64,000 bases of DNA from Mycoavidus sp. HKI. Lineage in GTDB: Bacteria; Pseudomonadota; Gammaproteobacteria; Burkholderiales; Burkholderiaceae. Shown here piece by piece: positions 4,071 to 36,728 of the stretch. Both the position numbers and the translations under genes were made by a program. The notes under the pieces were generated by a model that saw only the letters and a list, made by a program, of their open reading frames with translations, was not told where the DNA came from and did not search any database. The DNA is taken from contig NZ_CP076444.2 in assembly GCF_020023735.2 (NCBI RefSeq), forward strand, positions 1,689,501 through 1,753,500, written 5' to 3'. Position 1 is the first letter of the stretch; every line of letters begins with the position of its first letter.

Positions 4071-7000
4071 TCAGGACCAACTCATTAATTCCTCCAGCTT
4101 GCGCGCCAGAATGCGACCGATTTCCGCGGTCGGTTCTGGCTGATTCATGTCTCCGTGTTTGCAGGGAATATCATAGACTGCGATACTCCCAAGCACATAT
4201 GGATTCCACGCGTCGGTGGAGACGAGCGTATGGGATTCATCCTCCGCTATGGTTGCACGAAAGAAGAGCGCATTCCCGCTATAAGTGGATGGGGAAAATA
4301 TCCTCCGAATACGCCTATGGTTTTGCATAACCTTAAAGGCGTTTTCCCATCGCCGCTCATCCATGGCCGAAAACATTTCATCCCCATAGCGAGAAGCAGC
4401 CTGAGCATCTATCGCATCTCGGTCGAGCTCCCGTTTATCGCTCAAGCGGCCAGGGTCCGGATCGCTATCCAACAAAGCCAGCAGCGCCACGCTTTCGCCC
4501 TGCTGTTCGAGTTGAGTGGCCATGCTGTGCGCCACATAGCCACCGAAGGACCATCCTAGCAAATGGTAAGGCCCATTAGGCTGGATACGGCGAATGTGCT
4601 CGATGTAGTCCGACGCCATCGCGTCGATTGTTTCCGCCAGTGGCGCGGTGCCATCGAACCCACGGTCTTGCAAACCATAGACGGGTTGATCGGCGCCTAA
4701 GTGCCTTGACAGACCGATATAACTCCAGCTCAAGCCGCCGCCGGGATGAATACAGAAAAGCGGTGGGCGAGTGCCCTTTGGTTGGAGAGGAAGCAGGACG
4801 GCAAAGGCATTTTCTTGTATGCCGTCCGGCATGAGCAAGCGCTGCGCCAACTCAGCGACGCTCGGCGCCTCGAACAAGGTCCGGATCGTGATGTCGATGT
4901 TCAGGCTCGCATAGATACGACTAATGAGCCGCATCGCAAGCAGTGAATGCCCGCCCAGGTCAAAGAAGTTGTCATGGCTATGCACCTTCTCCAATCCGAA
5001 GATCTCCGCCCACAATTCAGCCAGCGCCTTTTCCATCGGTGTTTGGGATGACGTCGAATCCCATGCTGACAATGCCTTGTGGTCAAGCTTGCCGTTGCGC
5101 ATCAGCGGTAAGTTGTCTAGCAATGTCACGGCGGCTGGGACCATCGGCGCGGGTAATTGTGTTGCCACATACTGGCGCAGATCCATCGGCTCGATGCGTG
5201 CGCCATCTTCTGCATCAGGCTGATGAAGGACCGCATAGCCAATCAGTTGTTTGTGGCCCACGCTATCCTTGCGGGCGATGACCGCGGCCTGCGCCACGGC
5301 CGAATGGCGTTGCAGAGCGGCTTCCACTTCGCCAGGCTCAATGCGCCAACCATCGATTGTGACCTGCCGATCGGTGCGACCGATGAAGTCCAGCGTCCCT
5401 TCCGGCCGCCAACGCACAAGATCGCCCGTGCGGTACATACGCGCGCCCACCGGACCGAACGGATGAGCCACAAAGCGCTCGGCCGTCCATCCCGGGCGGT
5501 GGACATAGCCTCGGGTCACGCCGTCGCCCGAGAGATACAACTCACCGGGCACTCCGATGGGAACAGGCCTCAGCCCCGCGTCTAGAACGTAAGCCTGGAC
5601 GTTGTCCAGCGGGGTGCTGATCGGTTTAGCGGCTGGTTTTGAGTTTGCTGTTTGCATTGCATAACAGGTCACGAAGGCGGTGGTCTCCGTCGACCCATTA
5701 CCATGGATGAGATCCATCTCGGGACACGCGCCGAGCACCTGCTGCACGGCATCGGCGCAGAGGGCTTCGCCTGCCACCAACACTTGGCGCACCCTCCCGA
5801 GACAGCTCGGATCGCCTTCGGTCATCCGATGAAACAGTTCTGCGGTAAGCCAAAGCGCGCTGACCTGGTGGCGCTGGATTACGTCTTGTAAGGCCGATAC
5901 GTCAAGCGCCTCCGGAGGGGCAATCATCACCTGCCCACCGGTGAGCAGCGGCTGCCACAGCTCATACATTGACGCATCGGAGGCCGGCGGCGAATGCAAC
6001 AGTACGCACTCCCGTGTTCCCGCCAGGGGCCCGTGCAACGCTAAATTGAGCACATTGCGATGGGTGATGCCAACCCCCTTGGGCTGTCCGGTGGAGCCAG
6101 AGGCATACATCAGACAGGCCAACTGCTCAGGGGCGCAGGCCGTAGCCGGATTATGGCTCGGCTCGCGGGCCAACAAGGAGTCGGCATCGACGACAATGAT
6201 CCGGGCATTATGCATTTTGCCGCGTGTTTGCAAGGTACAGTCTGTCAGCAAGAGCCGCGCGCGCGTCTCCCACAGTACGGCTTGTAAGCGGCTGTCCGGA
6301 TCTGTGTCATTAAGCGGCACATAAGCGCCGCCGGCCTTGATCACGGCCAGGGTGGCCACGATCCGCTCGGGCGTGCGCGGCATGAGGATCGCAACCGGCG
6401 TCTCCGGTACGATACCTTGTCGAATCAGGCAATGCGCGAGTCGGTTGGCTTGCGCATTAAGTTCAGCATAGCTGAACGATTGATCCTCAAAGACCAGAGC
6501 GATGGCGTCGGGTGCTTGGGTCACTTGCGCTTCGAATAACGCGGACAATGTTGTCTCGGGTAGCGGACGCGCAGTAGTGTTCCAGTCGACCAATAACTGC
6601 TGCCGTTCTGTGGCATCGAGCCATTCGATGCGTCCGACGGGCTGGGCGGGATCTTGCGCCATGGCCTCGAAGAGGCGAATCAGGCACTGCGTCAGCCGCT
6701 CAACCGTCTCACGATCGAACAGGTCGGGGCGATAACCCAATTGGAATGACAACTGTGCGCCCGGGACGGCGGTCAGACTGAGCGGATAATGCGTCGCGAC
6801 GCTGCCGCTGATGCCCATGATCCGTAGTTTACCCGCCACCTGCCGTGCACTGTGATCGACCGGGTAGTTTTCAAACACGACCAGCGTGTCGAACAGCTGA
6901 CCGAGTCCAGTCACACGCTCGATATCGGCTAGATCGAGGTGCTGATGTTCAAGTAGGCAAATTTGCTGATCTTGGAGGCGCGCCAACACATCGGCGATAG

Positions 7001-10000
7001 GCTGCGCCGGGCTGCATTGGAAGCGTAACGGCGGGGTGTGAATCAACAGCCCCACCATGTGCTCGATACCCGGCAATTCGGGCGGACGCCCGGCCACGGT
7101 CACACCGAAGACCACATCGCCGCGCCCCGTTAGATGGCTCAGTAAGAGGCCCCAAGCGCCTTGCACCAAGATATTCAGGGTGAGGCGCTGCTTGCGAGCC
7201 TGCTGGTTTAGCGCGCGGGTAAGCGTTTCGGATAGCGTCCAAGCCAAGGTTTCTTGGGGCGTCGACGTGGTCAGCCGTGCGGATGCGAGACGGGTCGGTT
7301 CTTGAAGCCCTGCGAGCACCTCGCGCCAAGCGCGCTCAGCGGCCGCGTGATCGCTCGCCTTGAGCCAAGCCAGGTAGTCCCGGTATGGCGTCACGCGCGG
7401 CAGCGCGCGCCCATCACCGCCATTGGCATATAAGGCGAACAACTCTCGGATCAGCACCGGCATCGACCAGCCGTCTAGCAAGATATGATGACATATAAAA
7501 ACCAATCGAGATTGGTTCGACGTCAGACGGACTAAGCTGAAACGCAACAACGGTGGCTGGGTAGGATTGAAGCGGCGTGAGCAGTCTTCCTGTAAAAAGC
7601 GCTGATAGGCTACTTCACGCGTGGCATTATCCAGTCCGCTGAGGTCGATCTCCTGCCAAGGCAGCGGGACGGTGCGTGGGATCACCTGGACTGGCTCGTT
7701 CAGCCCTTGGTGCACAAAGCTGGCGCGCAGATTGGCGTGGCGTTGCAGCAGCGCCTGTATCGCAGCTCGCAGGGCTTGACTGTCCAGCGTGCCCTCCAGA
7801 TTAAAAATCACCGGCATCGCATAGGCAGCTGATCCCTGGTCAGCCTGGAGGGCATAAAAGAGTTGGCCCTTTTGCAGCGGAGAGAGCGGCAAAATTTCCT
7901 CGAGTTCGGGTTGCCTCGCTTCCAATTGCTCGATTTGGTCCTGGCTAAGGCTCACAAGCGGCACGTCCGAGGGCGTCAAGCCGCCCGCATAGGGCTGCTC
8001 AGCATAGGCGACCAAGGCTTCCAAGACCTGGAACCAGGTCTGTGCCAGATCTTGCATCTGCTCGACGGTAAAAAGCGCGCCTGCCCAAGACCAGTTGGCA
8101 ATGAGCTCGGGCCCGTCGGGGCGATCCAGAGTGAGTACGTTCAATGAAATCGCGTGGGACAGCGGCATGGCCGGATCGTTGCCCCCACCCAACGTGCTGC
8201 TCTCAGGCGCCGGTCCCCAATCTTGCGCTTCGGGAGCGGCAAAGCGGCTCAGATAATTAAAGCTGATCTGTGGCGTCGGCAAATGCTTGAGGATCAGCGC
8301 GGTCTCGGCGTTCAAATGTCGCAATAGGCCATAGCCTAAGCCATGGTCCGGCAACGCGCGGAGTTGCTCCTTGGCGCGCTTCACCAACCGGCCCAGCGTG
8401 GGGCCGCCCTCCAAGGCCGCATCGAGATTTAATTTACCCAATTCGAACCGTATCGGGAAGAGACTCGTGAACCAGCCCACCGTACGCGACAGATCCAGGC
8501 TCGCGTCAAGAGGCTCGCGGCCATGCCCTTCCAGATCGATCAGGACATCGGGGTGATGATGCCCTTGGCGCTGCCGCCAGCAGGCCACCGCCAGCGCGAA
8601 CGCGCTCAGCAGCACATCATTGACACGCCCGTGAAAGCGCGCCGGCACTGCGCCGAGTAACGGCGCGGTAAGCGTGGCTGGTAACGTCAAGCTCAGATGC
8701 TGCGCCGTCGCCATGGTGTCATGCGCGGGATCCAGTGGGCGCGCGGACAAAAGCGCATCGGCGCCATCCAGCATTCGCTCCCAAAATGGCAATTCGGCAT
8801 ACCGGGTTTCGCTCAGCGCCTCATGCGAGAGCCATTGCGCCCAACGGCGCAAGGAGGTGCCGGTGGGCTCGAGCGCGATAGGCTGTCCGGCCTGCGCGGC
8901 TTGCCAGGCACTGGCCAGATCGGACAATAGGATGCGCCAGGATACCCCATCGACTGCCAGGTGATGAATCGTCAGCAGCAATCGGCCAGGCGCGTCGCCC
9001 GCCTCGAACCAGACCGCTTGCAGCATCACGCCGGCTTGTGGGTCGAGCCGGGTCTCAGCAGTTTGCGCTTCCTGACTGATCCGTGCCTGGCGGACGGACT
9101 CACCCAACGCCGCGATCTCGACGCGGCGCAGGCAGGCGCTAGCGGATACCGCTCCGGCAGGCGGAATCTGCAGCCCCCAGCCGGCGTCTTGTGCGGACAA
9201 TGGCAATAGCTGTAAGCGCAGCGCGTCGTGGTGATCGAGCAGCGCTTGCAAGGCGGTGCTCAGGTGATCGGCCTGAAGCGCGGCCGGCACTTGCAGTAGC
9301 ATCGTTTGATTAAAGCGGCCGATGGGCCCGTTACGCTCAAGGAACCAACGAATGATCGGCGTGAGCGGCACCTCGCCGGTAGCGATATCGGCCACGGCAG
9401 GCCGTGTATCGTCCAACGGTTTGGCCACGATGGCGAGCGCGGCAACGCTTTGATGCTGGAAAACCTCGCGCGGGGTGATCGCCCATCCTGCCTTGCGAGC
9501 GCGGCTAACTAATTGGATCGAGAGAACGCTATCACCGCCCAGATCAAAGAAGCTGTCATCGACGCCCACGCGCGGCACGCCCAACACATCGGTAAACAAC
9601 TCGGCAAGTGTCCGCTCCTGCGGCGTGCGCGGGGAGCGATAGCAGTGGTCTGAGATAAACTCGGGTGTGGGCAGTGCTCGGCGGTCGAGCTTGCCGTTGG
9701 GGGTTAACGGGAACGCATCCAGGCGCATGAACGCAGCCGGTACCATATACTCGGGCAAACGAGTGGCCACATGCGCACGCAGCGTGCTCGCCAGCGACTC
9801 GTCCGGTTTGGCCACGACATAGGCAATGAGGCGCTTGTCGCTGGCCTCGCCCAGCGCAAGCACCGCAGCGTCGCGTACCTGAGGGTGTCCAGCAAGACAC
9901 GCTTCGATTTCGCCCAGCTCGATGCGAAAGCCCCTCAGCTTGACCTGATGGTCGTTACGGCCGATGAACTCCAAATTGCCATCGGGCCAATAACGCGCCA

Positions 10001-13000
10001 GATCGCCAGTCTTGTACATCCGTGCGCCATCCTTGTCCGAGAACGGATCGCGCACAAAGCGCTCGGCGGTAAGCTCGGGCCGGTTCAGGTAGCCGCGCGC
10101 GACGCCTGCGCCACCGATATACAGCTCGCCGACCGCGCCCAGCGGCACCGGCTGGCCGTAGGTATCCAGCAGATAAAGCCGCGTGTTCGCAATCGGCTGG
10201 CCAATCGGGATGATCTGACCGCTAAAATCCCGTGAACTACGCCATGCTGTCGCACAAACGCTCGCCTCCGTTGGGCCATACGCATTGAATACGATGTGTT
10301 GCTCGCTTAAGATTCGAATCAATGTCGCACTGGGTGCTTCGCCAGCCAGAATCAGCGTCAGGGGTATGCTAAGGTTGAACAGCCCTTCACCATTTTGAAG
10401 CAGTGCAGGCGGTAAGGTCGCGTGCGTAATCGCATGACTGGTCAAATAATTGCACAGTGCATGCTGATCACGACGGGCCGTGTCGGGCGGCAAAAACAAG
10501 GCCGCACCGCTGCTGAAGGTCATCACGATTTCAGAGACGCTCGCATCAAAACTGAACGAGGCAAACTGCAACACTCGGCTATCTGCACGAACCTCAAAAC
10601 ACGCGATCTGCGCCTGGGCAAGATTGACTACGTTGTGATGCTGGACCATCACGCCTTTGGGCGTGCCGGTCGAGCCGGACGTATAGATCACATACGCCAA
10701 ATGGCGGGCCGTGAGGCCCGGCACCGACGGATTCGTGTCCGCCCGATCCAGCAGCGTGTTCGGATCAAGCACGGTGCGCCCGGCGAGCGCTGCATCACCG
10801 AGCGCGGCGCGGCCCGCCGCATCGGCCAACACGATATCGGGCGCGGCATCGGCTAGAATATGCGTGAGCCGCTCGCCCGGATACGCCGGGTCCAGCGGCA
10901 CATAGGCGCCGCCCGCCTTCAGAGTCGCCAGTAGCCCCACCACCATCGCAGGACTCCGCTCCACACAGATCGCCACGCGCGCATCGGGCTGCACTCCCAA
11001 CTCGATCAGCCGATGCGCCAGGCGATTGGCTTGTGCATTCAACTGTGCGTAGCTAAGCGTCTGATCCTCGTACACCAGCGCTGTCGCCTCGGGCGTGCGC
11101 GCCACCTGCGCTTCGAACAGCTGGTGGATGCATTGGTGCGCAGGATAATCCTGTTGCGTCGCGTTCCATGTCTGCAGCAGTAAGGTCCGCTCGGCCGACG
11201 CGAGCAGTTCAACGCAAGCCACCGGTTGCTGCACGTCGGCCGCCATCGCTTGCAGCATCGCCTGCAGATATCCTACGTGCCGTTCGATTGTCGCGCGCTC
11301 GAACAACGCCGTCGCATAGCTCAGACTGCCGACGATCTCCTCGCCCGCCTCATACAGGTTCAGATCAAGATCGAACTTGACCACGTCATATTCCAGCGCA
11401 AGCGGCAGCGCACTAAGACCGGGCAGGTTCCACGCTTCGGTCTCGTTGTTCTGCCACGCGAACATCACCTGAAACAACGGCGTATGCGCGAGATGGCGCG
11501 GCGGCTGCACGATTTCCACCACCTGCTCGAACGGCAGATCTTGATGCGCTTGCGCGTCCAATGTCGTGCGTCGCACCCGCTCGAGCAGGTGCGCCAAACG
11601 CGGCTCGCCTGACAGATCCAGGCGCAACGCCAGCGTGTTCACAAAGAAGCCGATCAACGGTTCGATCGCGGTGTGCCCCCGGTTCGCGCTTGGCGTGCCG
11701 ATCACCAGATCGGGTTGGCCCGACAAGCGCGAGAGCATCGCGCTCCACGCCGCGAGTACCGTCATGAACAGTGTCGCGCCGTGCGTGTGGCTCAAACGCT
11801 TGAGCGCGCGCGTCGTGGATGCATCGATATAAATGGGCACCCGCGCGCCAGCAAACGATTGCTGCGCCGGGCGGGGATGGTCCGTGGGCAACTCGAGCAG
11901 CACTGGCGCGTCGGCCAGCGTCGTGCGCCAGTAGTCGCTTTGGGCCTCAAGCCGCTCGCCCGAGAGCCACTGCCGCTGCCAGGCCGCATAATCCGGATAT
12001 TGGATCGCCAGCGGTGGCAGCGGATCGGCTTGGCCGTCACAGGCCGCGCGGTACAGCGCACCAAATTCGCGCACGAGCACCCCGGTCGACCAGCCATCCG
12101 AGACGATATGGTGCTGCGTGAGCAGCAATACGTGCGCATCGTCGGCCAGCTGGATCACGCTCGCGCGGACCAGCGGGCCATGCGTCAGATCGAACGGCGC
12201 GTGCGCTTCCTCGGCACAGAACGGCGCCAGTTGCGCATCGGCATCGCTCACTTTACGCCAATCGTGCCAATTCAGCGGCATGCCCACCTCGGCGGGCAGC
12301 AGCCGTACCTGCGGCTGGCCGTCCACGCTCAAAAAGACCGAGCGCAGCGCTTCGTGACGGGCCCATAGCGCATCCAGCGCCTGCTGCCACGCGCGCCGGT
12401 TCAAGGACCCCCGCACGCGCAGCGCGAACGGGATGTGATACGTGGCGCTCACGCCATCGAGCTGCGCGAGGAACCACAGCCGTTGCTGCGCGAACGACAG
12501 CGGCAGCGCCCCTTCGCGGGAGAGAGGTGAGATCGCGGGCAGCGCGGCGCTGTCTGGCGTGCTCTGCACGTTGAGCGCGGCGGCGAACCCGGCCAGCGTG
12601 GGCGCGGCGAATAGCGCCGCGAGCGGCAAGTCGGCACCGAGCGCAGCCACCCGGTTCATCAGTCGCACGGCGAGCAGCGAATGCCCGCCGAGCGCGAAAA
12701 AGCTGTCGTGCCGGCTGACCTGCTCGACGCCCAGTAGTTCAGACCAGATTGCCGCGAGCGCGGTCTCGAGCTCGCCTTGCGGCGCCTCGTATGCTTGATG
12801 CGCGAACGCATCGGCGTCTGGCGCCGGTAGCGCACGCCGGTCCAGCTTGCCGTTCGGCGTCAACGGCAACGCGTCGAGCTGCACGAACGCGGCCGGCACC
12901 ATATACTCGGGCAAGGTTGCGGCGACATGTGCGCGCAGCGTGCTGGCCAGCGCATCATCCGGCTCAGCCACCACATAGGCGACCAGGCGCTTGTCGCTGC

Positions 13001-16000
13001 CGTCGCCCACCACCAGCACGACCGCGTCGCGCACTTGCGGGTGCTGCGCCAGACACGCCTCAATCTCGCCCAACTCGATACGAAAGCCCCTCAGCTTGAC
13101 CTGATGGTCGTTACGGCCGATGAACTCCAAATTGCCATCGGGCTGATAACGCGCCAGGTCGCCCGTCTTGTATATCCGTGCGTCATCCTTGTCCGAGAAC
13201 GGATCGCGCACAAAGCGCTCGGCCGTCAACTCGGGCCGGTTCAGGTAGCCGCGCGCGACGCCTGCGCCACCGATGTACAGCTCGCCGACCGCGCCCAGCG
13301 GCACCGGCTGACCGCAGGCATCCAGTAAATAAATTCGTGTGTTCGCAATCGGCCGGCCGATCGGCACAGTGTCTTCTGCGTAATCCGATGGGCAACTCCA
13401 GGCCGTCACGTCAATCGCGACTTCCGTCGGACCATACAGGTTATACAGCCGCGCACCCGGTAATAGCGTTTGGCAAAGCCGGACACTCGCACCGGATAGC
13501 GCTTCACCACTGCAGATCAACCGTTGCACAGACGTACAGTGCTGAATCCCTTTATGGTGCAAAAACGTGCCGAGCATGGACGGCACGAAATGAACAGTGG
13601 TAATGCGCTGCCGGATTACCAACGCCATTAAGGCCGCGGTATCTCGGTGCACATCCGGTGCGGCCACAACCAGGGTGGCACCATTGAGCAAAGTCCAGAA
13701 AAACTCCCAGACAGACACGTCAAAACCAAAGGACGTTTTCTGTAGCACGCGGTCGGCCGTCGTCAAGCCATAGGCTTGTTGCATCCAGACCAGACGATTG
13801 ATCAGCGCCCGATGCTCACTTTGCACACCCTTCGGGGTACCGGTGGAGCCGGACGTGTAGATTACATACGCGAGATGGCGGGCCGTGAGACCCGGCACTG
13901 ACGGATTCGTGTTCGCCCGCTCCGGCAGCGTGTTCGGATCGAGCACGGTGTGCTCGGTGAGCGCCGCATCACCGAGCGCGGCACGGCCCGCCGCATCGGC
14001 CAGCACAATGTCGGGCGCGGCATCGGCCAGTACCTGCGCGAGCCGCTCGCCCGAATACGCCGGGTCCAGCGGCACATAGGCGCCGCCCGCCTTTAAGATC
14101 GCCAGTAGCCCCACCACCATCGCGGGACTACGCTCCACACAGATCGCCACGCGCGCATCCGGCTGTACCCCCAACTCGATCAGCCGATGCGCGAGGCAAT
14201 TGGCCTGTGCATTCAACTGTGCGTAGCTGAGCGTTTGATCCTCATACACCAGCGCCGTCGCCTCGGGCGTACGTGCCACCTGCGCTTCGAACAGCTGATG
14301 GATGCATTGGTGCGCAGGATAATCCTGTTGCGTTGCATTCCATGTCTGCAGCAGTAAGGTCCGCTCCGCGTTGGGCAACACCTCCAACTGCCGCACCGGC
14401 CGCTCGGGTGTCGCCTCGAGCGCCTCGGCCAGGCTTGCCAGCGCCTGCTGCATATAACCACACACCCGATCGGGATCCAGCGGCTCCACCACCTGCGCCG
14501 TCAGCCCCAGCGCCTGCCCGAAGTCCTCCACCGACAGCAGCAACGGATAATTGGTGCGTTCCTCTGCACTCAGTAGCTCGACGCCTGCTAGCCCGCCGCG
14601 CTCGCCCGAGGGCACATTGTGCCGGTAATTGAGCAGCGCACTAAACAGCGACGCGCCCGCCGGCACCCCGCTGCAGCGTTGCGCCAGCGCCAACGACGCA
14701 TGCTCATGTTCGAGTAGCGCCGCCAGCCGCGCATGCGTGTCGCGCGCGCTGTGCTCAACGCTGCCGTCGAGCTCCACGCGCAGCGGCAGCGTATTGATAA
14801 ACAGCCCCATCGCGCTGTCGGCGCCGTCACCCGCCTGCATCCGCCCGAACAGCACTGTGCCAAACACCACCCGCGGTTGACCGCTCGCGCACGCGAGCAC
14901 CTGCGCCCACGCCAGATGACACAGGCTGGCCAAGCTCACACCCAGGCGTCTGGCCTGCGCACGGAGCCGATCGTTCAATGCCGGCGGCAACATCCGCTGC
15001 GCGTCGTGCACGTGCGCACCGTCGCGATGCACCTGCGCAAGACCAAACGGCAACGTGGGTTCGTCCACGTCCGCGAGCCACTCGGTGAAAAAACGCGCAT
15101 GCTCGGCTTGACTCACGCCCAGGCGCGCTTGCGCGACCAGATGACGGAACGGCTGCGCTGCCGGCAGTGTCTCGCCCCGGCCTTCGATAAACGCCTGCAC
15201 CTCAGTGTGCAGGACTTCCAGCGTTGAGTGATCGCCAATCAGATGGTGCAGCAGCTGGACGAGCAGCCAACGGCCATCGGCATCTTGCGCAAACGCAAAG
15301 CGCAGCAGCGGCGCCTGGGTCAAATTCAGACGAAAGTGGCGGGGATCGAAGCGCCGCGCCAATTGTTCGGCGATCGGCCCGTCGGCGGCTTCCAGCACGA
15401 GCTCGGTCACCGACAGCAGCGCGTGACGCCAGACCACCTGCGCGGGTGTCGACACCCCTTGCCACACAAATGCGGTGCGCAGAATGTCGTGCCGGTTGAC
15501 GACCTGCTGGATGGCGCCCAGATACTGATCGAGCCGCGCCCGGCTATCAAAGGCCAGTTGGCCGATCAGCAAATACGGATCGCCTTCGCTTGCCAGCAGA
15601 TGGTGAAACAGGATGCCGTCCTGCAACGGCGAGAGCGCATAGATATCCTGGAGATTCGCGATGCCACCCGGCACCAGCCCGACAATCCGGTCGATATCGG
15701 CCTGCGTCAGGTCAATCAGTGGCAACATCGATGGTGTGAGCGCGGTGCTCTCGGGCGTGATGACGCTGGGCGGCACCGTCACGTCGCGAGTCTGGCCCAG
15801 CGCTTGAGCCAGCGCGCTGAGCGTCGGGGTGTCAAACAGCGCACGCACGGACAAGCCGAGCCCCAGACGCCGCAAACGCTCGATGAGCCGCACCGCGAGC
15901 AGCGAATGGCCGCCGAGTGCGAAGAAGCTGTCGTGCCGGCTAACCTGCTCGACGCCAAGCAGCTCGGACCAGATCGCTGCGAGCGCGGTCTCGCACTCGC

Positions 16001-19000: not shown

Positions 19001-22000
19001 CGCGAAACTGGCCCAGCGCTTGGGCCAACGCGCTGAGCGTCGGGGTGTCAAACAGCGCACGCACGGACAACCCTAGCCCCAGACGCCGCAAACGCTCGAT
19101 GAGCCGTACGGCGAGCAGCGAATGGCCACCGAGTGCGAAAAAGCTGTCGTGCCGGCTAACCTGCTCGACGCCGAGCAGCTCGGACCAGATCGCCGCGAGC
19201 GCGGTCTCGCACTCGCCTTGCGGCGCCTCGTACGCTTGCTGCGCGAACGCATCGGCGTCCGGCGCCGGCAGCGCGCGCCGGTCCAGCTTGCCGTTCGGCG
19301 TCAACGGCCACGCGTCGAGCCGCACAAATGCGGCCGGCACCATGTACTCGGGCAGTGCTGCGGCCACATGCGCGCGCAGCGTGCTGGCCAGCGCGTCATC
19401 GGCGGGCGCCACCACATAGGCCACCAGACGTTTGTCGCCGTCGTCGCCCAGCGCAAACACGGCCGCGTCGCGCACCTGCGGGTGCTGCGCCAGACACGCT
19501 TCGATTTCGCCCAGTTCGATGCGAAAACCCCGGAGCTTGACCTGATGGTCGTTGCGGCCCAAGTACTCGAGATTGCCGTCCGCCAGCCAACGGCCTAGGT
19601 CACCCGTCTTGTACATTCGTTCCTGACTGTCGCCTTGAAACGGGTTAACCACGAAGCGTTCCGCCGTCAGTGCGGGATGGTTCAGATAGCCTCGAGCCAC
19701 ACCTGCACCGCCGATATGGATTTCTCCGACCACGCCTACTGGCACTGGCTGGCCGTGGCGGTCGAGAATGTAGATTTGGGTGTTCGCGATGGGCCGCCCA
19801 ATGACTGCCTGTGGCGGTACTTGGTCCACACAGCCGTATTCATAGAACGTGACGTCGCCATTAACTTCCGACGATCCATAAAAATTTAGCAACCGAATGC
19901 TCGGCCATGTGGTGACAACCTGCCGTGCCAACTCGGGCGCTAGCCGCTCGCCACTGCATACGAGTATTCGTAGCATGTCGAGCTGATCCTTTTCCCCTTC
20001 CAAAAAAGCTTTGAGCAACGATGGCACGACGACCAAATGGGACACGCCAGTCTGCCTTAAACGTCGCGCGAATAAGGACGCGTCTTTAACCGTAGCATTG
20101 TCGAACGCAACCAACATGCCGCCAGCGAGCAACGCCCCAAGTACCTCGGTGACCGAGTCTACGAAGCCAATACTCGTCTTCAATGCAGTGACCGGCGCCT
20201 CTTTCACCACATTCAGGACAAACCACAGCAGGCGGTTAGTCAGTCCCCCGATGGTCGCGCTTACCCCCTTAGGCGTGCCGGTCGAGCCGGACGTATAGAT
20301 CACATACGCCAAATGGCGGGCCGTGAGGCCCGGCACCGACGGATTCGTGTCCGCCCGCTCCGGTAACGCATTCGGATCGAGCACCGTGCGCCCGGCGAGC
20401 GCCACGTCGCCAAGCGCAGCACGGCCCGCCGCATCGGCCAGCACGATATCGGGCGCGGCATCGGCCAGAATATGCGTGAGCCGCTCGCCCGGATACGCCG
20501 GGTCCAACGGCACATAGGCGCCGCCCGCCTTCAGAGTCGCCAGTAGCCCCACCACCATCGCGGGACTACGCTCCACACAGACCGCCACTCGCGCATCGGG
20601 CTGCGCTCCCAACTCGATCAGCCGATGCGCCAGGCGATTGGCCTGTGCATTCAACTGTGCGTAGCTAAGCGTCTGATCCTCGTACACCAGCGCTGTCGCC
20701 TCGGGCGTGCGCGCCACCTGCGCTTCGAACAGCTGGTGGATGCATTGGTGCGCAGGATAATCCTGTTGCGTCGCGTTCCATGTCTGCAGCAGTAAGGTCC
20801 GCTCGGCCGGCGCGAGCAGTTCGACGCAAGCCACCGGTTGCTGCGCGTCGGCCGCCATCGCTTGCAGCATCGCCTGCAGATATCCCACGTGCCGTTCGAT
20901 CGTCGCGCGCTCGAACAACGCCGTCGCATAGCTCAGACTGCCAACGATCTCCTCGCCCGCCTCATACAAGTTCAGATCAAGATCGAACTTGACCACGTCA
21001 TATTCCAGCGCAAGCGGCAGCGCACTAAGACCGGGCAGGTCCCACGCTTCGGTCTCGTTGTTCTGCCACGCGAACATCACCTGAAACAGCGGTGTATGCG
21101 CGAGCTGGCGCGGCGGCTGCACGATTTCCACCACCTGCTCGAACGGCAGATCTTGATGCGCTTGCGCGTCCAATGTCGTGCGTCGCACCCGCTCGAGCAG
21201 GTGCGCCAGACGCGGCTCGCCTGACAGATCCAGGCGCAACGCCAGCGTGTTCACAAAGAAGCCGATCAACGGTTCGATCGCGGTGTGCCCCCGGTTCGCG
21301 CTTGGCGTGCCGATCACCAGATCGGGTTGGCCCGACAAGCGCGAGAGCACCGCGCTCCACGCCGCGAGTACCGTCATGAACAGTGTCGCGCCGTGCGTGT
21401 GGCTCAAACGCTTGAGCGCGCGCGTCGTGGACGCATCGATATAAATGGGCACCCGCGCGCCAGCAAACGATTGCTGCGCCGGGCGGGGATGGTCCGTGGG
21501 CAACTCGAGCAGCACTGGCGCGTCGGCCAGCGTCGTGCGCCAGTAGTCGCTTTGGGCCTCAAGCCGCTCGCCCGAGAGCCACTGCCGTTGCCAGGCCGCA
21601 TAATCCGGATATTGGATCGCCAGCGGTGGCAGCGGATCGGCTTGGCCGTCACAGGCCGCGCGGTACAGCGCACCAAATTCGCGCACGAGCACCCCGGTCG
21701 ACCAGCCATCCGAGACGATATGGTGCTGCGTGAGCAGCAGTACGTGCGCATCGTCGGCCAGCTGGATCACGCTTGCGCGGACCAGCGGGCCATGCGTCAG
21801 ATCGAACGGCGCGTGCGCTTCCTCGGCACAGAACAGTGCCAGTTGCGCATCGGCATCACTCACTTTACGCCAATCGTGCCAGTTCAGCGGCATGCCCACC
21901 TCGGCGGGCAGCAGCCGTACCTGCGGCTGGCCGTCCACGCTCAAAAAGACCGAGCGCAGCGCTTCGTGACGGGCCCATAGCGCATCCAGCGCCTGCTGCC

Positions 22001-25000
22001 ACGCGAGCCGGTTCAAGGGCCCCCGCACGCGCAGCGCGAACGGGATGTGATACGTGGCGCTCACGCCGTCGAACTGCGCGAGGAACCACAGCCGTTGCTG
22101 CGCGAACGACAGCGGCAGCGCCCCCTCGCGGGAGAGGGGTGAGATCGCGGGCAGCGCGGCGCTGTCTGGCGTGCGCTGCGCGTTGAGCGCGGCGGCGAAC
22201 CCGGCCAGCGTGGGCGCGGCGAATAGCGCCGCGAGTGGCAAGTCGGCGCCGAGCGCGGCCACCCGGTTCATCAGTCGCACGGCGAGCAGCGAATGCCCGC
22301 CGAGCGCGAAGAAGCTGTCATGCCTGCTGACCTGCTCGACGCCCAGTAGTTCAGACCAGATTGCCGCGAGCGCGGTCTCGAGCTCGCCTTGCGGCGCCTC
22401 GTATGCTTGATGCGCGAACGCATCGGCGTCTGGCGCCGGTAGCGCACGCCGGTCCAGCTTGCCGTTCGGCGTCAACGGCAACGCGTCGAGCTGCACGAAC
22501 GCGGCCGGCACCATATACTCGGGCAAGGTTGCGGCGACATGTGCGCGCAGCGTGCTGGCCAGCGCATCATCCGGCTCAGCCACCACATAGGCGACCAGGC
22601 GCTTGTCGCCGCCGTCGCCCACCGCCAGCACCACCGCGTCGCGCACTTGCGGGTGCTGCGCCAGACACGCCTCGATCTCACCCAGCTCGATACGAAAGCC
22701 CCTCAGCTTGACCTGATGGTCGTTACGGCCGATGAACTCCAAATTGCCATCGGGCTGATAACGCGCCAGATCGCCCGTCTTGTACATCCGTGCGTCATCC
22801 TTGTCCGAGAACGGATCGCGCACAAAGCGCTCGGCGGTCAACTCGGGCCGGTTCAGATAGCCGCGCGCGACGCCCGCGCCACCGACGTATAGTTCGCCCA
22901 CCGCGCCCAATGGCACCGGCTGTCCGTATGCATCGAGCAAATAAACCTTCAAATCCGGAATCCGCACGCCCATCGGACTGCCAACTTGAGTGCTGTCCTG
23001 GGATCGAAGCGGCCGGTAGGTCACATGCACAGTCGTTTCTGTAATTCCATACATGTTTACCAATTGCGGAGTCTGCTCTGCGCGTGTCGCATACCACGTT
23101 TGCAAGATGGAAGGCTCCAACGCTTCTCCACCAAAAATCACATAGCGTAATTGATCCCGTAATGTGTTTTGCGCTTGGCTGGCGATAAATGTCTTGAACG
23201 CACTCGGGGTCTGATTCAATACGGTGACACCCTGTTCACAGACCAACCGGTGGAAGTCTTGTGGTGAACGAGCAATCTGATGGGGAACGATGATGAGCTT
23301 GCCACCATGACGCAATGCTCCCCAGATCTCCCAAACAGAGAAATCGAAAGCAAAGGAGTGAAACAGGCACCAGATATCATGCTGGTCAAAGTGATACCAA
23401 GATTGGGTCGCGTCAAACAGACGGACAACCTGTGCATGCTCGACCATCACGCCCTTGGGCGTGCCGGTCGAGCCAGATGTATAGATCACATACGCGAGAT
23501 GACGGGCCGTCAGGCCCGGCACCGACGGATTCGTGTCCAGCCGATCCGGCAGCACAGTCGGGTCGAGTACGGTACGGGACACGAGCGCCACGTCACCGAG
23601 CGCGGCGCGGCCCGCCGCATCGGCCAGCACAATCTCGGGCGCGGCATCGGCCAGAATATGCGCGAGCCGCTCGCCCGAATACGCCGGGTCCAGCGGCACA
23701 TAGGCGCCGCCCGCCTTCAGGATCGCCAGTAGCCCCACCACCATCGCCGGACTCCGCTCCACACAGATCGCCACGCGCGCATCGGGCTGTACCCCCGACT
23801 CGATCAGCCGATGCGCCAGGCGATTAGCCTGTGCATTCAACTGTGCGTAGCTGAGCGTTTGATCCTCATACACCAACGCCGTCGCCTCAGGCGCGCGCGC
23901 GACCTGCGCTTCGAACAACTGGTGGATGCATTGGTGCGCAGGATAATCCTGTTGCGTCGCATTCCATGTCTGCAGCAGTAAGGTCCGCTCCGCGTTGGGC
24001 AATACCTCCAACTGCCGCACCGGCCGCTCGGGTGTCGCCTCGAGCGCCTCGGCCAGGCTTGCCAGCGCCTGCTGCATATAACCACACACCCGAGCGGGAT
24101 CCAGCGACTCCACCACCTGCGCCGTCAGCCCCAGCGCCTGCCCGAAGTCCTCCACCGACAGCAGCAACGGATAATTGGTGCGTTCCTCTGCACTCAGTAG
24201 CTCGACGCCTGCTAGCCCGCCGCGCTCGCCCGAGGGAACATTGTGCCGGTAATTGAGCAGCGCACTGAACAGCGGCGCGCCCGTCGGCACCCCGCTGCAG
24301 CGTTGCGCCAGCGCCAACGACGCATGCTCATGTTCGAGTAGCGCCGCCAGCCGCGCATGCGTGTCGCGCGCGCTGTGCTCAACGCTGCCGTCGAGCTCCA
24401 CGCGCAGCGGCAGCGTATTGATAAACAGCCCCATCGCGCTGTCGGCGCCGTCACCCGCCTGCATCCGCCCGAACAGCACCGTGCCGAACACCACCCGCGG
24501 CTGACCGCTCGCGCACGCGAGCACCTGCGCCCACGCCAGATGACACAGGCTGGCCAGGCTCACACCCAGGCGTCTGGCCTGCGCGCGCAGCCGATCGTTC
24601 AATGCCGGCGGCAACATCCGCTGCGCTTCGTGCACGTGCGCGCCGTCGCGATGCACCTGCGTAAGACCGAACGGCAACGTGGGTTCGTCCACGTCCGCGA
24701 GCCACTCGGTGAAAAAACGCACATGCTCGGCTTGACTCACGCCCAGGCGCGCTTGCGCGACCAGATGACGGAACGGCTGCGCTGCCGGCAGTGTCTCGCC
24801 CCGGCCTTCGATGAACGCCTGCACCTCGGTGTGCAGGACTTCCAGCGCCGAATGATCGCTCACCAGATGGTGCAGCAGTTGGACGAGCAGCCAGCGGCCA
24901 TCAGCGTCTTGCGCAATCACAAAGCGCAGCAGCGGCGCCTGGGTCAAATCCAGACGAAAGTGGCGGGGATCGAAGCGCCGCGCCAATTGTTCAGCGATCG

Positions 25001-28000
25001 GCCCATCGGCAGCCTCCAGCACAAGCTCGGTCACCGACAGCAGCGCATGACGCCAGACCACCTGCGCGGGTGTCGACACCCCTTGCCACACAAATGCGGT
25101 GCGCAGAATGTCGTGCCGGTTGATAACCTGCTGGACGGCGCCCAGATACTGATCGAGCCGCGCCCGGCTATCAAAGGCCAGTTGGCCGATCAGCAAATAC
25201 GGATCGCCTTCGCTTGCCAGCAGATGGTGAAACAGGATGCCGTCCTGCAACGGCGAGAGCGCATAGATATCTTGGAGATTCGCGATGCCACCCGGCACCT
25301 GCCCGACAATCCGGTCGATGTCGGCCTGCGTCAGGTCAATCAGTGGCAACATCGATGGCGTCAGCGCGGTGGTCTCGGGCGTAATGACGTTGGGCGGCAC
25401 CGTCACGTCGCGAAACTGGCCCAGCGCTTGGGCCAACGCGCTGAGCGTCGGGGTGTCAAACAGCGCACGCACGGACAACCCTAGCCCCAGACGCCGCAAA
25501 CGCTCGATGAGCCGTACGGCGAGCAGCGAATGGCCACCGAGTGCGAAAAAGCTGTCGTGCCGGCTAACCTGCTCGACGCCGAGCAGCTCGGACCAGATCG
25601 CCGCGAGCGCGGTCTCGCACTCGCCTTGCGGCGCCTCGTACGCTTGCTGCGCGAACGCATCGGCGTCCGGCGCCGGCAGCGCGCGCCGGTCCAGCTTGCC
25701 GCTCGGCGTCAACGGCCACGCGTCGAGCCGCACGAACGCGGCCGGCACCATATACTCGGGCAGGCCGGCTGCAACGTGCGCGCGCAGCGTGCTCGCGAGT
25801 AGTTCATCGGGCTCGGCCACGACATAGGCAATGAGCCGCTTGTCGCTGGCCTCACCCAGTGCGAGCACAACGGCTTCGCGCACGGCCGGATGCGTGACGA
25901 GGCGCGCCTCAATCTCACCAGGCTCGATCCGAAAGCCACGGAGCTTGACCTGATGGTCGTTGCGGCCGAGGTACTCGAGATTGCCGTCGAGCCGGTAGCG
26001 GGCCAGATCTCCCGTCTTGTACATCCGCGCATCCTCGCAGTCGCAGAACGGATCGGGAACGAACCGCTCGACGGTCAGTTCCGGGCGATTCAGATAGCCA
26101 CGCGCGACACCGGCCCCGCCAATGTACAGTTCACCCACCGCGCCCAATGGCACCGGCTGTCCGTGTGCGTCTAGCAGGTAAATCCGTGTGTTTGCGATTG
26201 GCCGGCCAATGGTGGGTAGCATTTGGGTCGGTTTCAGCTCAGCAAGCGTCGCATCCACCGTGCATTCGGTCAGACCGTAAACATTATAGACCGTCAAGTG
26301 TGGCGCATTGGCCAGTCCCTGCCAAGTAGGGGCAGCAATTGATTCGCCCCCAACGAGCAAGGTCAATGCGCGTGGGTGCTTGAGCAAATCCGCTGACAGC
26401 AACATCTCAAGCTGGAGCGGTGTGCAATCCAACACGTCGACGTTTGTAGCCGCGAGCCATTGGAGTAAAGCGGCACCATCGGCTCGTATAGGTTGCGGAA
26501 TCGGCATGAGCGTGCACCCATTCAGCAGACTGAGCACGCTTTGCAACGATGCGTCAAATACAATACTGGCGTTCAAGCCCACCCTAGCATGCATTGGACA
26601 GCGAGCGAATACAGCATGCTGCAATGCGCTGTATAGATTAGCCAACGACTGGTGCTCGACCATCACGCCCTTCGGCATGCCGGTGGAGCCAGATGTATAG
26701 ATCACATACGCGAGATGACGGGCCGTCAGGCCCGGCACCGACGGATTCGTGTCCAGCCGATCCGGCAGCACAGTCGGGTCGAGTACGGTACGGGACGCGA
26801 GCGCCACGTCACCGAGCGCGGCGCGGCCCGCCGCATCGGCCAGCACAATCTCGGGCGCGGCATCGGCCAAAATATGCGTGAGCCGCTCGCCCGGATATGC
26901 CGGGTCCAACGGCACATAGGCGCCGCCCGCCTTCAAGATCGCCAGTAGCCCCACCACCATCGCGGGACTACGCTCCACGCAGATCGCCACTCGCGCATCG
27001 GGCTGTACCCCCAACTCGATCAGCCGATGCGCCAGGCGATTGGCCTGTGCATTCAACTGTACATAGCTGAGTGTTTGATCCTCATGCACCAGCGCCGTCG
27101 CCTCGGGCGTGCGCGCCACCTGCGCTTCGAACAGCTGATGGATGCATTGGTGCGCAGGATAATCCTGCTGTGTCGTGTTCCACTCGACCAGCAGTCGATG
27201 CCGCTCCTCGGCATCCAGCAGCTCGACGCCGCCGATGGGCTGCGTAGCGTCGGCCGCAAGCGCTTCCAGAAACTGGACAAACCGGCGCTGATACGCAACC
27301 AGCTCCTCCATGGAGTAGCATGCGGGATTCGCATTAAAGTCAATCCGTACTTGACTGCAGTCCGGCAGCGGATACACCCCCAGCATCAGATCTTCGACCG
27401 GCCCATTAAGCAGATTATGGTTCGTTGACGCATGTTCGCCAAAAGACAGACCGTAGTCAAACGGCATCACGTTAACCCCAGTGCTGAACAGCAGTTGGCC
27501 TGGGGCCAGTCCAAGTTTGCGCCGCAGCGCTTCGCTCGGGTAGCGTTGATACCGGAAGCCGCGTCGGATCTCCTGCGCGGCCTGCTGCATCAAAGACGAC
27601 AGGGTCATTTCCGGGTGCACCGTGAACCGAAGTGGCACAGCGTTCGCGAGGGTACCAGGAATGTGCCGGTCAGCGCCCAGGCGGGCGGTTACCGGAAAGC
27701 CCAATACCACGTCCTGTGCGCCGGTCATGCGATACAGATACGCGGCCAGCACGGCGGTCAGCAACTGGGCCAGCCGGCCTGCATCCGACGCGTAGTCCCC
27801 CACTGTTTGGGCCGCTAGATAAGTCGTCTGACGCAGCCGATGCTGTAATGCGGGCGCGCTGCGGCTTGCCAGTGTGGCTGGCTCGGGCCAAGCCGTGCAG
27901 CGCTTAAGCCAATATGCTTCGTCCCGTGCCCGTTGGGCAGATTTTTGGTAGCGCGCATCGCTTTCCAACAGCTGCTGTACCGAACCAAAAGCACACGGCG

Positions 28001-28508
28001 GCGGCTCAATCCCCGCACACATCGCGCTATACACTTGCGCGACGCGTTGCGCGATAAGTGCGCCGCCATATCCATCCACCATGATATGGTGACTGCGCTG
28101 ATACGAAATAAATTGCTCGGGCGCGACTTTCAACAGTGCGTACTGAAAAAGCGGCCCGCGTAATATATCCACGGGTCGCTCATAATCGGCGCGCATCCAG
28201 GCTTCAGTGGCCGCCGGGGGGTTGGTTTGTGCGCTGAAATCAAGCAACGGCACGGATGCTTCCGGTGAGCCGATAGACTGCCGTAGACCTTCATCACTTT
28301 CGCCAAATTGCAAGCGCAGGCTGTCCGCCTCACCGATCACCTGCCGCACTGCCGCTTCATATAGAGCAGGCTCAACGGCACCTTCGATCACCGTGTATTG
28401 CGCAATGTTGTAGACAGGGCTGTCCGGATGCAGTTGCTGGGCAAGCCAGATCTCGGTTTGCGCGGCCGATAACGGATAAGTAATAAAAGACGTAACACAA
28501 GCAGACAT
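4071..28508 (-). CDS. Seven-module non-ribosomal peptide synthetase
   Basis: A single 8147-residue protein (numbered from the ATG at 28514) with 23 domains. M1: EntF-like C (HHIMVDG at 142), A, PCP (Ser996). M2: C 1080-1515, A, PCP (Ser2075). M3: C (HHIVSDG 2264), A, PCP (Ser3132). M4: C, A, PCP (Ser4204). M5: C, A, PCP (Ser5279). M6: C (HH 5468), A, PCP of LGGDS type (Ser6329), E (HHLAVDG 6517). M7: C (HHILLDG 7009), A, PCP (Ser7857), thioesterase (Ser7989, Asp8016, His8120). C2, C4 and C5 carry HHLLASEGD, the mark of dual condensation/epimerization domains. Hand-read pocket codes: A1 DAQDLGVVD (Gln), A2 DFWNIGMVH (Thr), A3 VDTVVSFGD (beta-Ala-like), A4 DVASIGAVC (aromatic?), A5 DVWHISLID (Ser), A6 DASTIAAVC (Tyr), A7 DAYWLAGAF (aliphatic?). 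No MbtH, PPTase or exporter gene is in the window. Of three consecutive ATGs, the third (28508) is best spaced from GGAGG. Confidence 0.95.
11160..13330 (-). repeat. NRPS internal duplication, copy spanning end of module 5 to start of A6
   Basis: This stretch (C-terminal part of A5, PCP5, C6 and the first part of A6) is nearly identical in DNA to 20772-22942 (A2 end, PCP2, C3, start of A3). The offset is a constant 9612 bases: the HHIVSDG codons lie at 12113 and 21725, exactly 9612 apart. Only scattered substitutions separate the copies, so the duplication or a later gene conversion is recent. Confidence 0.85.
20772..22942 (-). repeat. NRPS internal duplication, copy spanning end of module 2 to start of A3
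   Basis: Partner of 11160-13330 at a fixed offset of 9612 bases. Similar long near-identical blocks cover the three dual C/E domains (about 14460-15990, 17670-19200 and 24080-25610, spaced about 3216 and 6408 bases). The gene is therefore a mosaic of a few repeated building blocks. Confidence 0.85.
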
Positions 28509-28521
28509 CATCATCCTCCAA
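28509..28521 (-). promoter_or_regulatory. Ribosome binding site of the NRPS gene
   Basis: On the minus strand ttggagg is followed at once by atgatgatg. The first ATG touches the GGAGG, so the third (6-base spacing) is the likely start. An AT-rich ctattatct lies some 15 bases further upstream and could be a -10 box, but I see no matching -35. Confidence 0.6.
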
Positions 28522-36597: not shown

Positions 36598-36728
36598 TTC
36601 AACGCTTAACCTATTTGGGCTGTATTCATGGCCTCTGATGTTCCGCCGCGAGCATTGCTCGTATTTGGTTAAATGACTGACACAGAACAACATTCAAACT
36701 GGTTTACCAGTTCTGAATGGGGGTATTA

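What the first reader, a model, noticed from the sequence alone, without database searches (positions are those of the whole stretch)
4071..28508. Predicted heptapeptide: acyl?-D-Gln-Thr-betaAla-D-aromatic-Ser-D-Tyr-aliphatic
Pocket codes for Gln, Thr, Ser and Tyr match well-known specificity codes; A3 fits the beta-alanine code VDxVISxGD closely. An EntF-like first C domain suggests that an acyl or aryl group from elsewhere starts the chain. The thioesterase could close a lactone on Thr2 or Ser5. I know of no named product with this sequence.
Basis: partly seen in the sequence, partly recalled or inferred. Interest (0 to 1): 0.8.

Follow-up and report, generated by a model that had tools for sequence, protein, structure and literature searches.

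The report
Symbiosin-type lipopeptide synthetase, dead last module
A giant enzyme in a bacterium that lives inside fungi most likely builds symbiosin, an already described fatty six-residue ring peptide, rather than a new seven-residue one, because its seventh building unit has decayed.

Summary
The window holds one 8147-aa NRPS gene (28514..4071, minus strand): Cs-A-T, five C-A-T modules (the last with E), then C-A-T-TE. The codes for Gln, Thr, bAla, an aromatic (probably Trp), Ser and Tyr are confirmed; two dual-type C domains and one E domain fit the D pattern. (1) The order is not unknown: it matches pleosporacin (acyl-D-Gln-Ser-bAla-D-Trp-Ser-D-Tyr lactone), whose scaffold symbiosin of endofungal bacteria is reported to share. 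(2) The peptide is probably a hexapeptide: A7 breaks 6 of 47 near-invariant positions (A1-A6 none; 4 of 1304 background domains as many), and an orthologue in another genus has a differently broken A7 but unchanged Gln, bAla and Tyr codes. E, C7, T7 and TE look intact. The first C domain is RzmA-Cs-like, so the starter is a fatty acyl. The gene also seems to have moved between genera (NRPS dS 0.28-0.41; three housekeeping genes saturated). The symbiosin paper was not held, so identity with its cluster, and the organism (Ca. Mycoavidus necroximicus), are inferred. Mainly a known system with a useful twist.

The parts
4071..28514 (-). single-chain NRPS, 8147 aa: Cs-A1-T1 / C2-A2-T2 / C3-A3-T3 / C4-A4-T4 / C5-A5-T5 / C6-A6-T6-E / C7-A7(decayed)-T7-TE
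27189..28481 (-). C1, starter condensation (Cs) domain; 661.4 bits to RzmA-Cs (PDB 7c1k) vs 158.9 to EntF; Gly at the site that I align with the acyl-length gate
25593..27083 (-). A1, code DAQDLGVVD: Gln (Glu possible)
   Evidence: code
23976..25274 (-). C2, dual-type C/E (HHLVSDH): would make residue 1 D
   Evidence: class by recall
22356..23870 (-). A2, code DFWNIGMVH: Thr
20790..22127 (-). C3, canonical C (HHIVSDG)
19185..20684 (-). A3, code VDTVVSFGD: beta-alanine (recalled code); same code in 8 other proteins of the coded set, among them a Ralstonia pseudosolanacearum NRPS
17559..18866 (-). C4, dual-type C with altered motif HHLIGDR; its donor would be achiral beta-alanine
15969..17453 (-). 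A4, code DVASIGAVC: aromatic, probably Trp (by resemblance)
14352..15650 (-). C5, dual-type C/E (HHLIGDH): would make residue 4 D
   Evidence: class by recall
12744..14246 (-). A5, code DVWHISLID: Ser
11178..12515 (-). C6, canonical C (HHIVSDG)
9594..11072 (-). A6, code DASTIAAVC: Tyr
9432..9635 (-). T6, LGGDSV type expected before an E domain (recalled)
7986..9377 (-). E domain (HHLAVDG): makes residue 6 D; intact by the near-invariant test
6591..7901 (-). C7, HHILLDG, intact by the near-invariant test
5040..6488 (-). A7, decayed adenylation domain (T130A, F174S, Y269N, G295S, K382T, P472S in model columns)
4839..5054 (-). T7, LGGHSL present; one of 7 near-invariant columns changed
4095..4754 (-). 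TE, GWSFG, intact by the near-invariant test

Best explanation
The gene is the symbiosin-type synthetase of a Mycoavidus endosymbiont of Mortierella-group fungi (very probably Ca. Mycoavidus necroximicus). The RzmA-like Cs domain loads a medium or long fatty acyl onto Gln. Modules 1-6 build acyl-D-Gln-Thr-bAla-D-aromatic(Trp)-Ser-D-Tyr, with D centres set by dual-type C2 (Gln), dual-type C5 (Trp) and the E domain (Tyr). Module 7 adds nothing, because its A domain can no longer adenylate. The hexapeptidyl chain passes from T6 to T7 (or straight to the TE), and the TE closes a lactone from Thr2-OH to the D-Tyr6 carbonyl. Shown by sequence: domain order, codes, starter-C relationship, decay of A7, an orthologue with a differently decayed A7. 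Inferred: the substrates themselves, the dual function of C2 and C5, the bypass of module 7, the ring-closing hydroxyl, the product's identity with symbiosin and the organism's name.
For: Codes and order. Same order (Ser for Thr at 2), stereochemistry and ring in pleosporacin, with symbiosin named as sharing the scaffold and made by endofungal bacteria (PMC12177691, section 5 read whole). None of the 11 other frames of this genome whose A domains were coded has this order. Genome traits fit Ca. M. necroximicus: 2.25 Mb; 46-47 C domains against 0 and 1 in two congeners; ketosynthase arrays at three places; an 8.4-kb PKS/NRPS piece with two long matches (7.6 kb, 70% DNA identity) in 1 of 6 relatives, short matches only in four others and none in one. 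The review (passages) reports a necroxime cluster and 12% of the genome in biosynthetic clusters for that organism. Cs: 661.4 bits to RzmA-Cs. A7 decay: 6 of 47 columns vs 0 in each of A1-A6; 4 of 1304 background domains reach 6; orthologue A7 5 of 47, plus D235 to G. E, C7 and TE intact, T7 nearly so. Module skipping in a natural NRPS has been reported (myxochromide S, as told in PMC5984369, passages).
Against: The symbiosin paper (10.1039/D2SC04167G) is not held, so symbiosin's exact residues, its cluster and any comment on a seventh module were not seen. The organism name comes from traits, not from a record, and another Mycoavidus (strain SF9855) also encodes large NRPSs (P0133, P0236), so NRPS wealth alone does not identify it. 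A4 = Trp rests on resemblance only. A7 keeps the A10 lysine and the Asp of the code in this copy, so inactivity here is a strong inference, not a measurement. C7 and T7 surviving while A7 decays could mean that T7 is loaded in trans. A2, A4 and A5 of the orthologue were not seen.
Confidence: 0.8

Rival explanations
1. Module 7 is used: the product is a heptapeptide lactone with a Val-like seventh residue, because A7 still works poorly or T7 is charged in trans by another A domain such as those of the 2980-aa NRPS at G000:C1:1093699-1102638.
For: C7 and TE pass the near-invariant test, T7 nearly. A7 keeps a Val-like code (DAYWLAGAF) and the A10 lysine. The 2980-aa NRPS has relatives of A7 (60 and 57% identity) with 0 violations.
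Against: 6 violations in A7 (4 of 1304 background reach it) and a differently broken A7 in the orthologue, including loss of Asp235 and of the Gly-Ser of the A3 core. The known scaffold with the same first six residues ends at D-Tyr6.
Confidence: 0.1
2. The gene makes a close but unnamed hexapeptide congener (another residue at position 4 or another acyl chain) and the published symbiosin cluster is a different gene or strain.
For: The published cluster was not seen; A4 could be read as another aromatic; two symbiont strains were reported to make symbiosin (recalled abstract of the symbiosin paper).
Against: None of the 11 other coded frames of this genome has the order, and the traits of the genome fit the reported producer.
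Confidence: 0.1
3. C7 closes the ring itself, as the terminal CT domain of the fungal PleA does at the same place in its line, and A7-T7-TE is a leftover tail.
For: C7 sits directly after T6-E, where fungal PleA carries its CT domain. A7 is decayed. TE has the highest dN/dS of the 14 pieces compared (0.42).
Against: TE has 0 of 21 near-invariant violations in both copies. C7 scores as an ordinary C domain (310.9 bits to PF00668). The low dS of the tail inflates its dN/dS. The pleosporacin paper says that the symbiosin NRPS uses another strategy of terminal cyclisation than PleA.
Confidence: 0.05

Closest known systems
Symbiosin synthetase of Ca. Mycoavidus necroximicus (Buettner et al., Chem Sci, 10.1039/D2SC04167G; paper not seen, known through passages of PMC12177691 and PMC12306442)
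   Same: Endofungal origin, cyclic lipodepsipeptide scaffold, bacterial NRPS whose loading and cyclisation differ from the fungal enzyme
   Different: No difference known to me; the deposited locus could not be compared. Whether the decayed seventh module has been described is not known to me.
PleA, pleosporacin synthetase of a Pleosporales fungus (PMC12177691)
   Same: Same residue order and D/L pattern over six residues, except Ser instead of Thr at position 2
   Different: Fungal, hexamodular, 8396 aa, T0 plus acyl-AMP ligase for the start, CT domain for ring closure; here Cs start, TE end and an extra decayed module
RzmA / HolA lipopeptide synthetases of Mycetohabitans/Paraburkholderia rhizoxinica (PMC7804268)
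   Same: Cs domain highly similar to RzmA-Cs (661.4 bits over 423 residues)
   Different: Gly at the site that I align with the length gate, as in its long-chain variants; different peptide
Ralstonia pseudosolanacearum NRPS (P0179, ralsolamycin/ralstonin type by recall)
   Same: A domain with the identical code VDTVVSFGD
   Different: Different residue order

Membership tests
pleosporacin-type cyclic lipodepsipeptide synthetase (scaffold reported to be shared by symbiosin) | module order Gln-Ser/Thr-bAla-Trp-Ser-Tyr | tested here: met
   codes by alignment; Trp at position 4 only by resemblance of the code
pleosporacin-type cyclic lipodepsipeptide synthetase (scaffold reported to be shared by symbiosin) | D configuration at residues 1, 4 and 6 | tested here: met
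   HHxxxDH-type C2 and C5 and an E domain after module 6; reading the HHxxxDH class as dual C/E rests on recall
pleosporacin-type cyclic lipodepsipeptide synthetase (scaffold reported to be shared by symbiosin) | fatty-acyl start | tested here: met
   RzmA-Cs homology
pleosporacin-type cyclic lipodepsipeptide synthetase (scaffold reported to be shared by symbiosin) | six incorporating modules | tested here: inconclusive
   seven modules, A7 decayed in two orthologous genes; inactivity not measured
published symbiosin (sym) cluster | sequence identity with the deposited locus | not testable with these tools
published symbiosin (sym) cluster | endofungal Mycoavidus host with necroxime cluster | tested here: inconclusive
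   ketosynthase arrays present and one piece shared with one relative; no comparison with a named necroxime record
   by sequence only: 6 of 47 near-invariant columns changed; A1-A6 0 each; 4 of 1304 background domains with 6 or more
EntF-like aryl starter module | first C domain closest to EntF | tested here: not met
   158.9 bits to EntF, 661.4 to RzmA-Cs

The most novel reading that the evidence does not exclude
A lipopeptide synthetase keeps an intact C-T-TE tail around a dead A domain. The terminal module serves as a pass-through relay (or its C domain helps close the ring) instead of adding a residue. The gene has moved between two genera of endofungal bacteria with the dead module in place, each copy further broken in its own way, so the relay rather than the residue is what selection keeps.
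Probability: 0.35. Interest if true: 0.55.

Novelty: already known. Interest (0 to 1): 0.38.

Why it matters
It moves an apparent orphan heptapeptide to a described surfactant that strengthens an anti-nematode toxin in a fungus-bacterium symbiosis, and it shows why counting modules would give the wrong peptide. The two differently broken copies of A7 are a natural test of how an NRPS chain crosses a dead module. The low divergence of the gene between two endofungal genera, against saturated housekeeping genes, points to transfer of a host-protecting pathway between symbionts of different fungi.

Tried and rejected
EntF-like aryl starter: rejected, RzmA-Cs fits far better. Another NRPS of the genome as the symbiosin enzyme: not supported by the codes of 43 A domains in 12 frames, the window's included. 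The pattern missed at least one A domain of the 5404-aa protein, which the profile search lists, and several AMP-binding matches (for instance at 64625, 447162, 1115544 and 1687635) were not coded. dN/dS as proof of decay in A7 (0.32, above A1, A3 and A6 at 0.125-0.160): not used, because dS is also low in the whole E-TE tail. First run of the near-invariant test was faulty, because gap symbols were misread and only 12 background domains were kept; redone. In one search the cut of 95% let changes common to the whole lineage through, so A1-A6 showed 3-4 there; at 98% they show 0. A tie between the altered motif of C4 (HHLIGDR) and its achiral donor: not supported as a rule, since the orthologue keeps DH there and another NRPS of the genome has HHLIDDN after a Thr module (the script did not read the motif in four of the 23 domains of this class). 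Protein search with the tail: nothing above 51% identity among the 120 listed of 587 scored. Search with A3: 120 listed of 625 scored, up to 72% identity; by the narrow patterns used, none of the 256 coded proteins other than the window's has the Gln-Thr/Ser-bAla order. Literature searches for the code strings, a bAla code and the Ralstonia product gave only the Gln/Glu and Thr codes.
Full report
What is there. The frame 28514..4071 (minus) codes for 8147 aa. Pfam, at E up to 1e-5, finds Condensation, AMP-binding (with its C-terminal part), PP-binding and a terminal Thioesterase (with an overlapping Abhydrolase_1 match). Motif and domain positions give seven C, one E, seven A, seven T and one TE: Cs-A-T, five C-A-T modules of which the last is followed by E, and C-A-T-TE. 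G+C is 0.59-0.65 in the 4-kb windows that lie in the gene and 0.41-0.51 in the others.

Where it lies. The window is part of a single-contig genome of 2,254,889 bases with 47 Condensation matches (46 in the repeat within). Two other genomes of the same genus in the sample have 0 and 1, but a further strain, Mycoavidus sp. SF9855, encodes NRPSs of 6645 and 5418 aa (P0133, P0236). The SelO gene beside the NRPS has its nearest listed relatives in Burkholderiaceae (60-64% identity in the 80 loci kept of 460; records of this genome or near ones may be left out). Arrays of ketosynthase domains lie at three other places; the 13 NRPS-type frames examined add up to 158,937 bases, 7.0% of the genome. 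A review (passages seen, PMC12306442) states that Ca. [quoted passage not shown] The size of its genome as about 2.2 Mb is recalled. I infer that the window comes from this organism or a near relative; no record name was seen.

Codes. Aligning the A domains found by pattern (43 in 12 frames of this genome) and reading the recalled GrsA positions gives, for the window: DAQDLGVVD, DFWNIGMVH, VDTVVSFGD, DVASIGAVC, DVWHISLID, DASTIAAVC, DAYWLAGAF, repeated with a profile alignment. A survey of codes (PMC12283262, passages) lists DAQDLGVVDK for Glu/Gln and DFWNIGMVHK for Thr. Ser and Tyr are one conservative step from codes that I recall. The A3 code recurs without change in eight other proteins of the set (one of this genome, one fragment of the orthologue, six database hits), one of them a Ralstonia pseudosolanacearum NRPS; that it stands for bAla, and that the Ralstonia product holds bAla, is recalled. 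A4 as Trp is by resemblance.

Product class. Pleosporacin is myristoyl-D-Gln1-L-Ser2-bAla3-D-Trp4-L-Ser5-D-Tyr6 with a lactone from Ser2 to Tyr6. The paper says that symbiosin, colisporifungin, verruculin, ophiotine and aselacin A share the macrocyclic scaffold and differ mainly in the acyl group, and that symbiosin comes from endofungal bacteria whose candidate cluster could not be validated (PMC12177691, section 5 read in full). Symbiosin's own residues I did not see. The related aselacins C and D hold Gly, Thr, D-Trp, D-Gln and Ser or Ala, with a contact from Thr to Gly (PMC8537450, passages), so the residues of this group do vary. The window's order is that of pleosporacin with Thr for Ser at position 2. 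Among the 256 proteins coded (240 database hits plus frames of this and related genomes), only the window's has Gln-Thr/Ser-bAla by the patterns used.

Start. C1 matches the RzmA starter domain (PDB 7c1k) at 661.4 bits over 423 residues, and EntF at 158.9 bits. The entry codes belong to RzmA-Cs (PMC7804268, passages). In that paper, shortening residue 148 from Arg to Gly lengthens the acyl chain from C2 to C8 or C10 (section 7 read). By alignment with the 7c1k chain, the window has Gly at what I take to be this site ([10 protein letters not shown]); the orthologue also has Gly. A medium or longer fatty acyl is therefore expected.

Stereochemistry. C2, C4 and C5 form one class with 23 members in the frames of this genome, mostly with HHxxxDH, which I take to be dual C/E domains. 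For C2 the nearest solved structures are PvdL and other C domains at low scores (132 bits at best), so this class rests on recall. C2 and C5 would set D-Gln1 and D-residue 4; C4 receives achiral bAla. The E domain after T6 sets D-Tyr6 and looks intact (1 of 48 near-invariant columns changed; 133 of 257 background domains have at least one).

The seventh module. With 1304 A domains from 240 database proteins as background, 47 columns are at least 98% conserved. A1-A6 of the window break 0 each; A7 breaks 6 (T130A, F174S, Y269N, G295S, K382T, P472S), a number reached by 4 of 1304. Of 42 A domains of this genome that passed the gap filter, the 41 others break 0 to 3. The background comes from two searches with parts of this protein and is not an independent sample. 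In the run with 587 domains, four of the six residues of A7 occur in none of the 587 at their columns and two in one each. Still present in A7: the A10 lysine and the Asp of the code. The other domains of the tail were tested in the same way: C7 1 of 28 columns (105 of 332 background domains have at least one), T7 1 of 7 (25 of 475), TE 0 of 21 (background 53 domains).

Orthologue. In 299 genomes of the family (an even draw from a larger group), the stretch that holds A7 has its best match outside this genome at 85% identity (G097, contig 19), then 63% (G087). G097 carries residues 1-1267 at 90.8%, 2396-3403 at 89.2% and 5600-8143 at 88.2% identity on three contigs; the parts between, with A2, A4 and A5, were not found and not pursued. 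At the code positions A1, A3 and A6 are unchanged. A7 of G097 has lost the Asp of the code and has changes in the A3 core and A8, 5 of 47 columns. A less related tail in G087 (66% identity) also has changes in the A3 core, including its Lys (3 of 47). The shared changes T130A and K382T suggest that decay began before the first two copies parted.

Transfer. Between the window genome and G097, dnaB, minD and part of uvrC have 84.3, 84.5 and 73.1% protein identity and 58-66% third-position differences (dS could not be computed, taken as saturated), whereas the three NRPS pieces have 88-91% identity, dS 0.28-0.41 and 17-25% third-position differences. Three genes are a small sample, but this is hard to explain without horizontal transfer. 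G097 belongs to another genus, which by its mix of 3.3-3.8 Mb and 1.1-1.2 Mb members I take to be Mycetohabitans in its GTDB sense (inference). An 8.4-kb PKS/NRPS piece from the array at 13-65 kb, possibly of the necroxime cluster, has two long matches (70% DNA identity, 7.6 kb together) in G097; of the five other genomes tested, four have short matches only and one has none. That array is more diverged than the NRPS.

Mechanism. Fatty acyl-CoA, Cs, D-Gln, Thr, bAla, D-Trp, Ser, D-Tyr; then bypass of module 7 and TE lactonisation on Thr2. Module skipping has been reported for module 4 of the myxochromide S line and proposed for an engineered plipastatin line with a deleted A domain (PMC5984369, passages). 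The bypass and the ring position are inferred. Expected [M+H]+ for the hexapeptide: 863.430, 891.461, 919.492, 947.524 and 975.555 for C8, C10, C12, C14 and C16.

Assessment. The finding's reading of six pockets is good. Its seventh residue and its claim of an unknown product are not. The system is in print as symbiosin as far as I can judge. The decayed terminal module and the transfer are not mentioned in the parts I saw of the two papers that I opened of the nine holding the word 'symbiosin'; the primary paper is not held, so I cannot say that they are new.

Noticed in passing
G000:C1:1681136-1690019 (L116:2237-11120), its end reaching window 519: Beside the NRPS, on the plus strand: a cytochrome P450, a 1191-aa protein with FkbH and condensation domains, an IS4-family transposase, then a 795-aa protein with an AMP-binding domain lacking its first part and a thioesterase; it looks like an FkbH-NRPS split by the insertion element. 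Described only, not joined.
   Followed up: partly
G000:C1:2044858-2080740 (L094-L096): An open frame of 11961 aa with eleven A domains (codes beginning Ser-Ser-Thr and ending in the bAla code) and a TE motif, very large for so small a genome.
   Followed up: partly
window 17559-18866: C4 has HHLIGDR where its class mostly has HHxxxDH; the orthologue keeps DH. Its donor would be achiral bAla, so loss of the epimerising function would cost nothing.
   Followed up: partly
window 1131-3746: 871-aa WD40-repeat protein (13 WD40 stretches) convergent with the NRPS, of eukaryotic style.
   Followed up: no
window 36717-43892: 2391-aa two-partner-secretion haemagglutinin-like protein followed by a 178-aa frame without Pfam match.
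   Followed up: no
G000 against G001 and G002 (same genus): 46-47 condensation domains in this genome against 0 and 1 in two congeners of 1.9 and 2.8 Mb, while Mycoavidus sp. SF9855 encodes large NRPSs: NRPS content varies strongly within the genus.
   Followed up: partly
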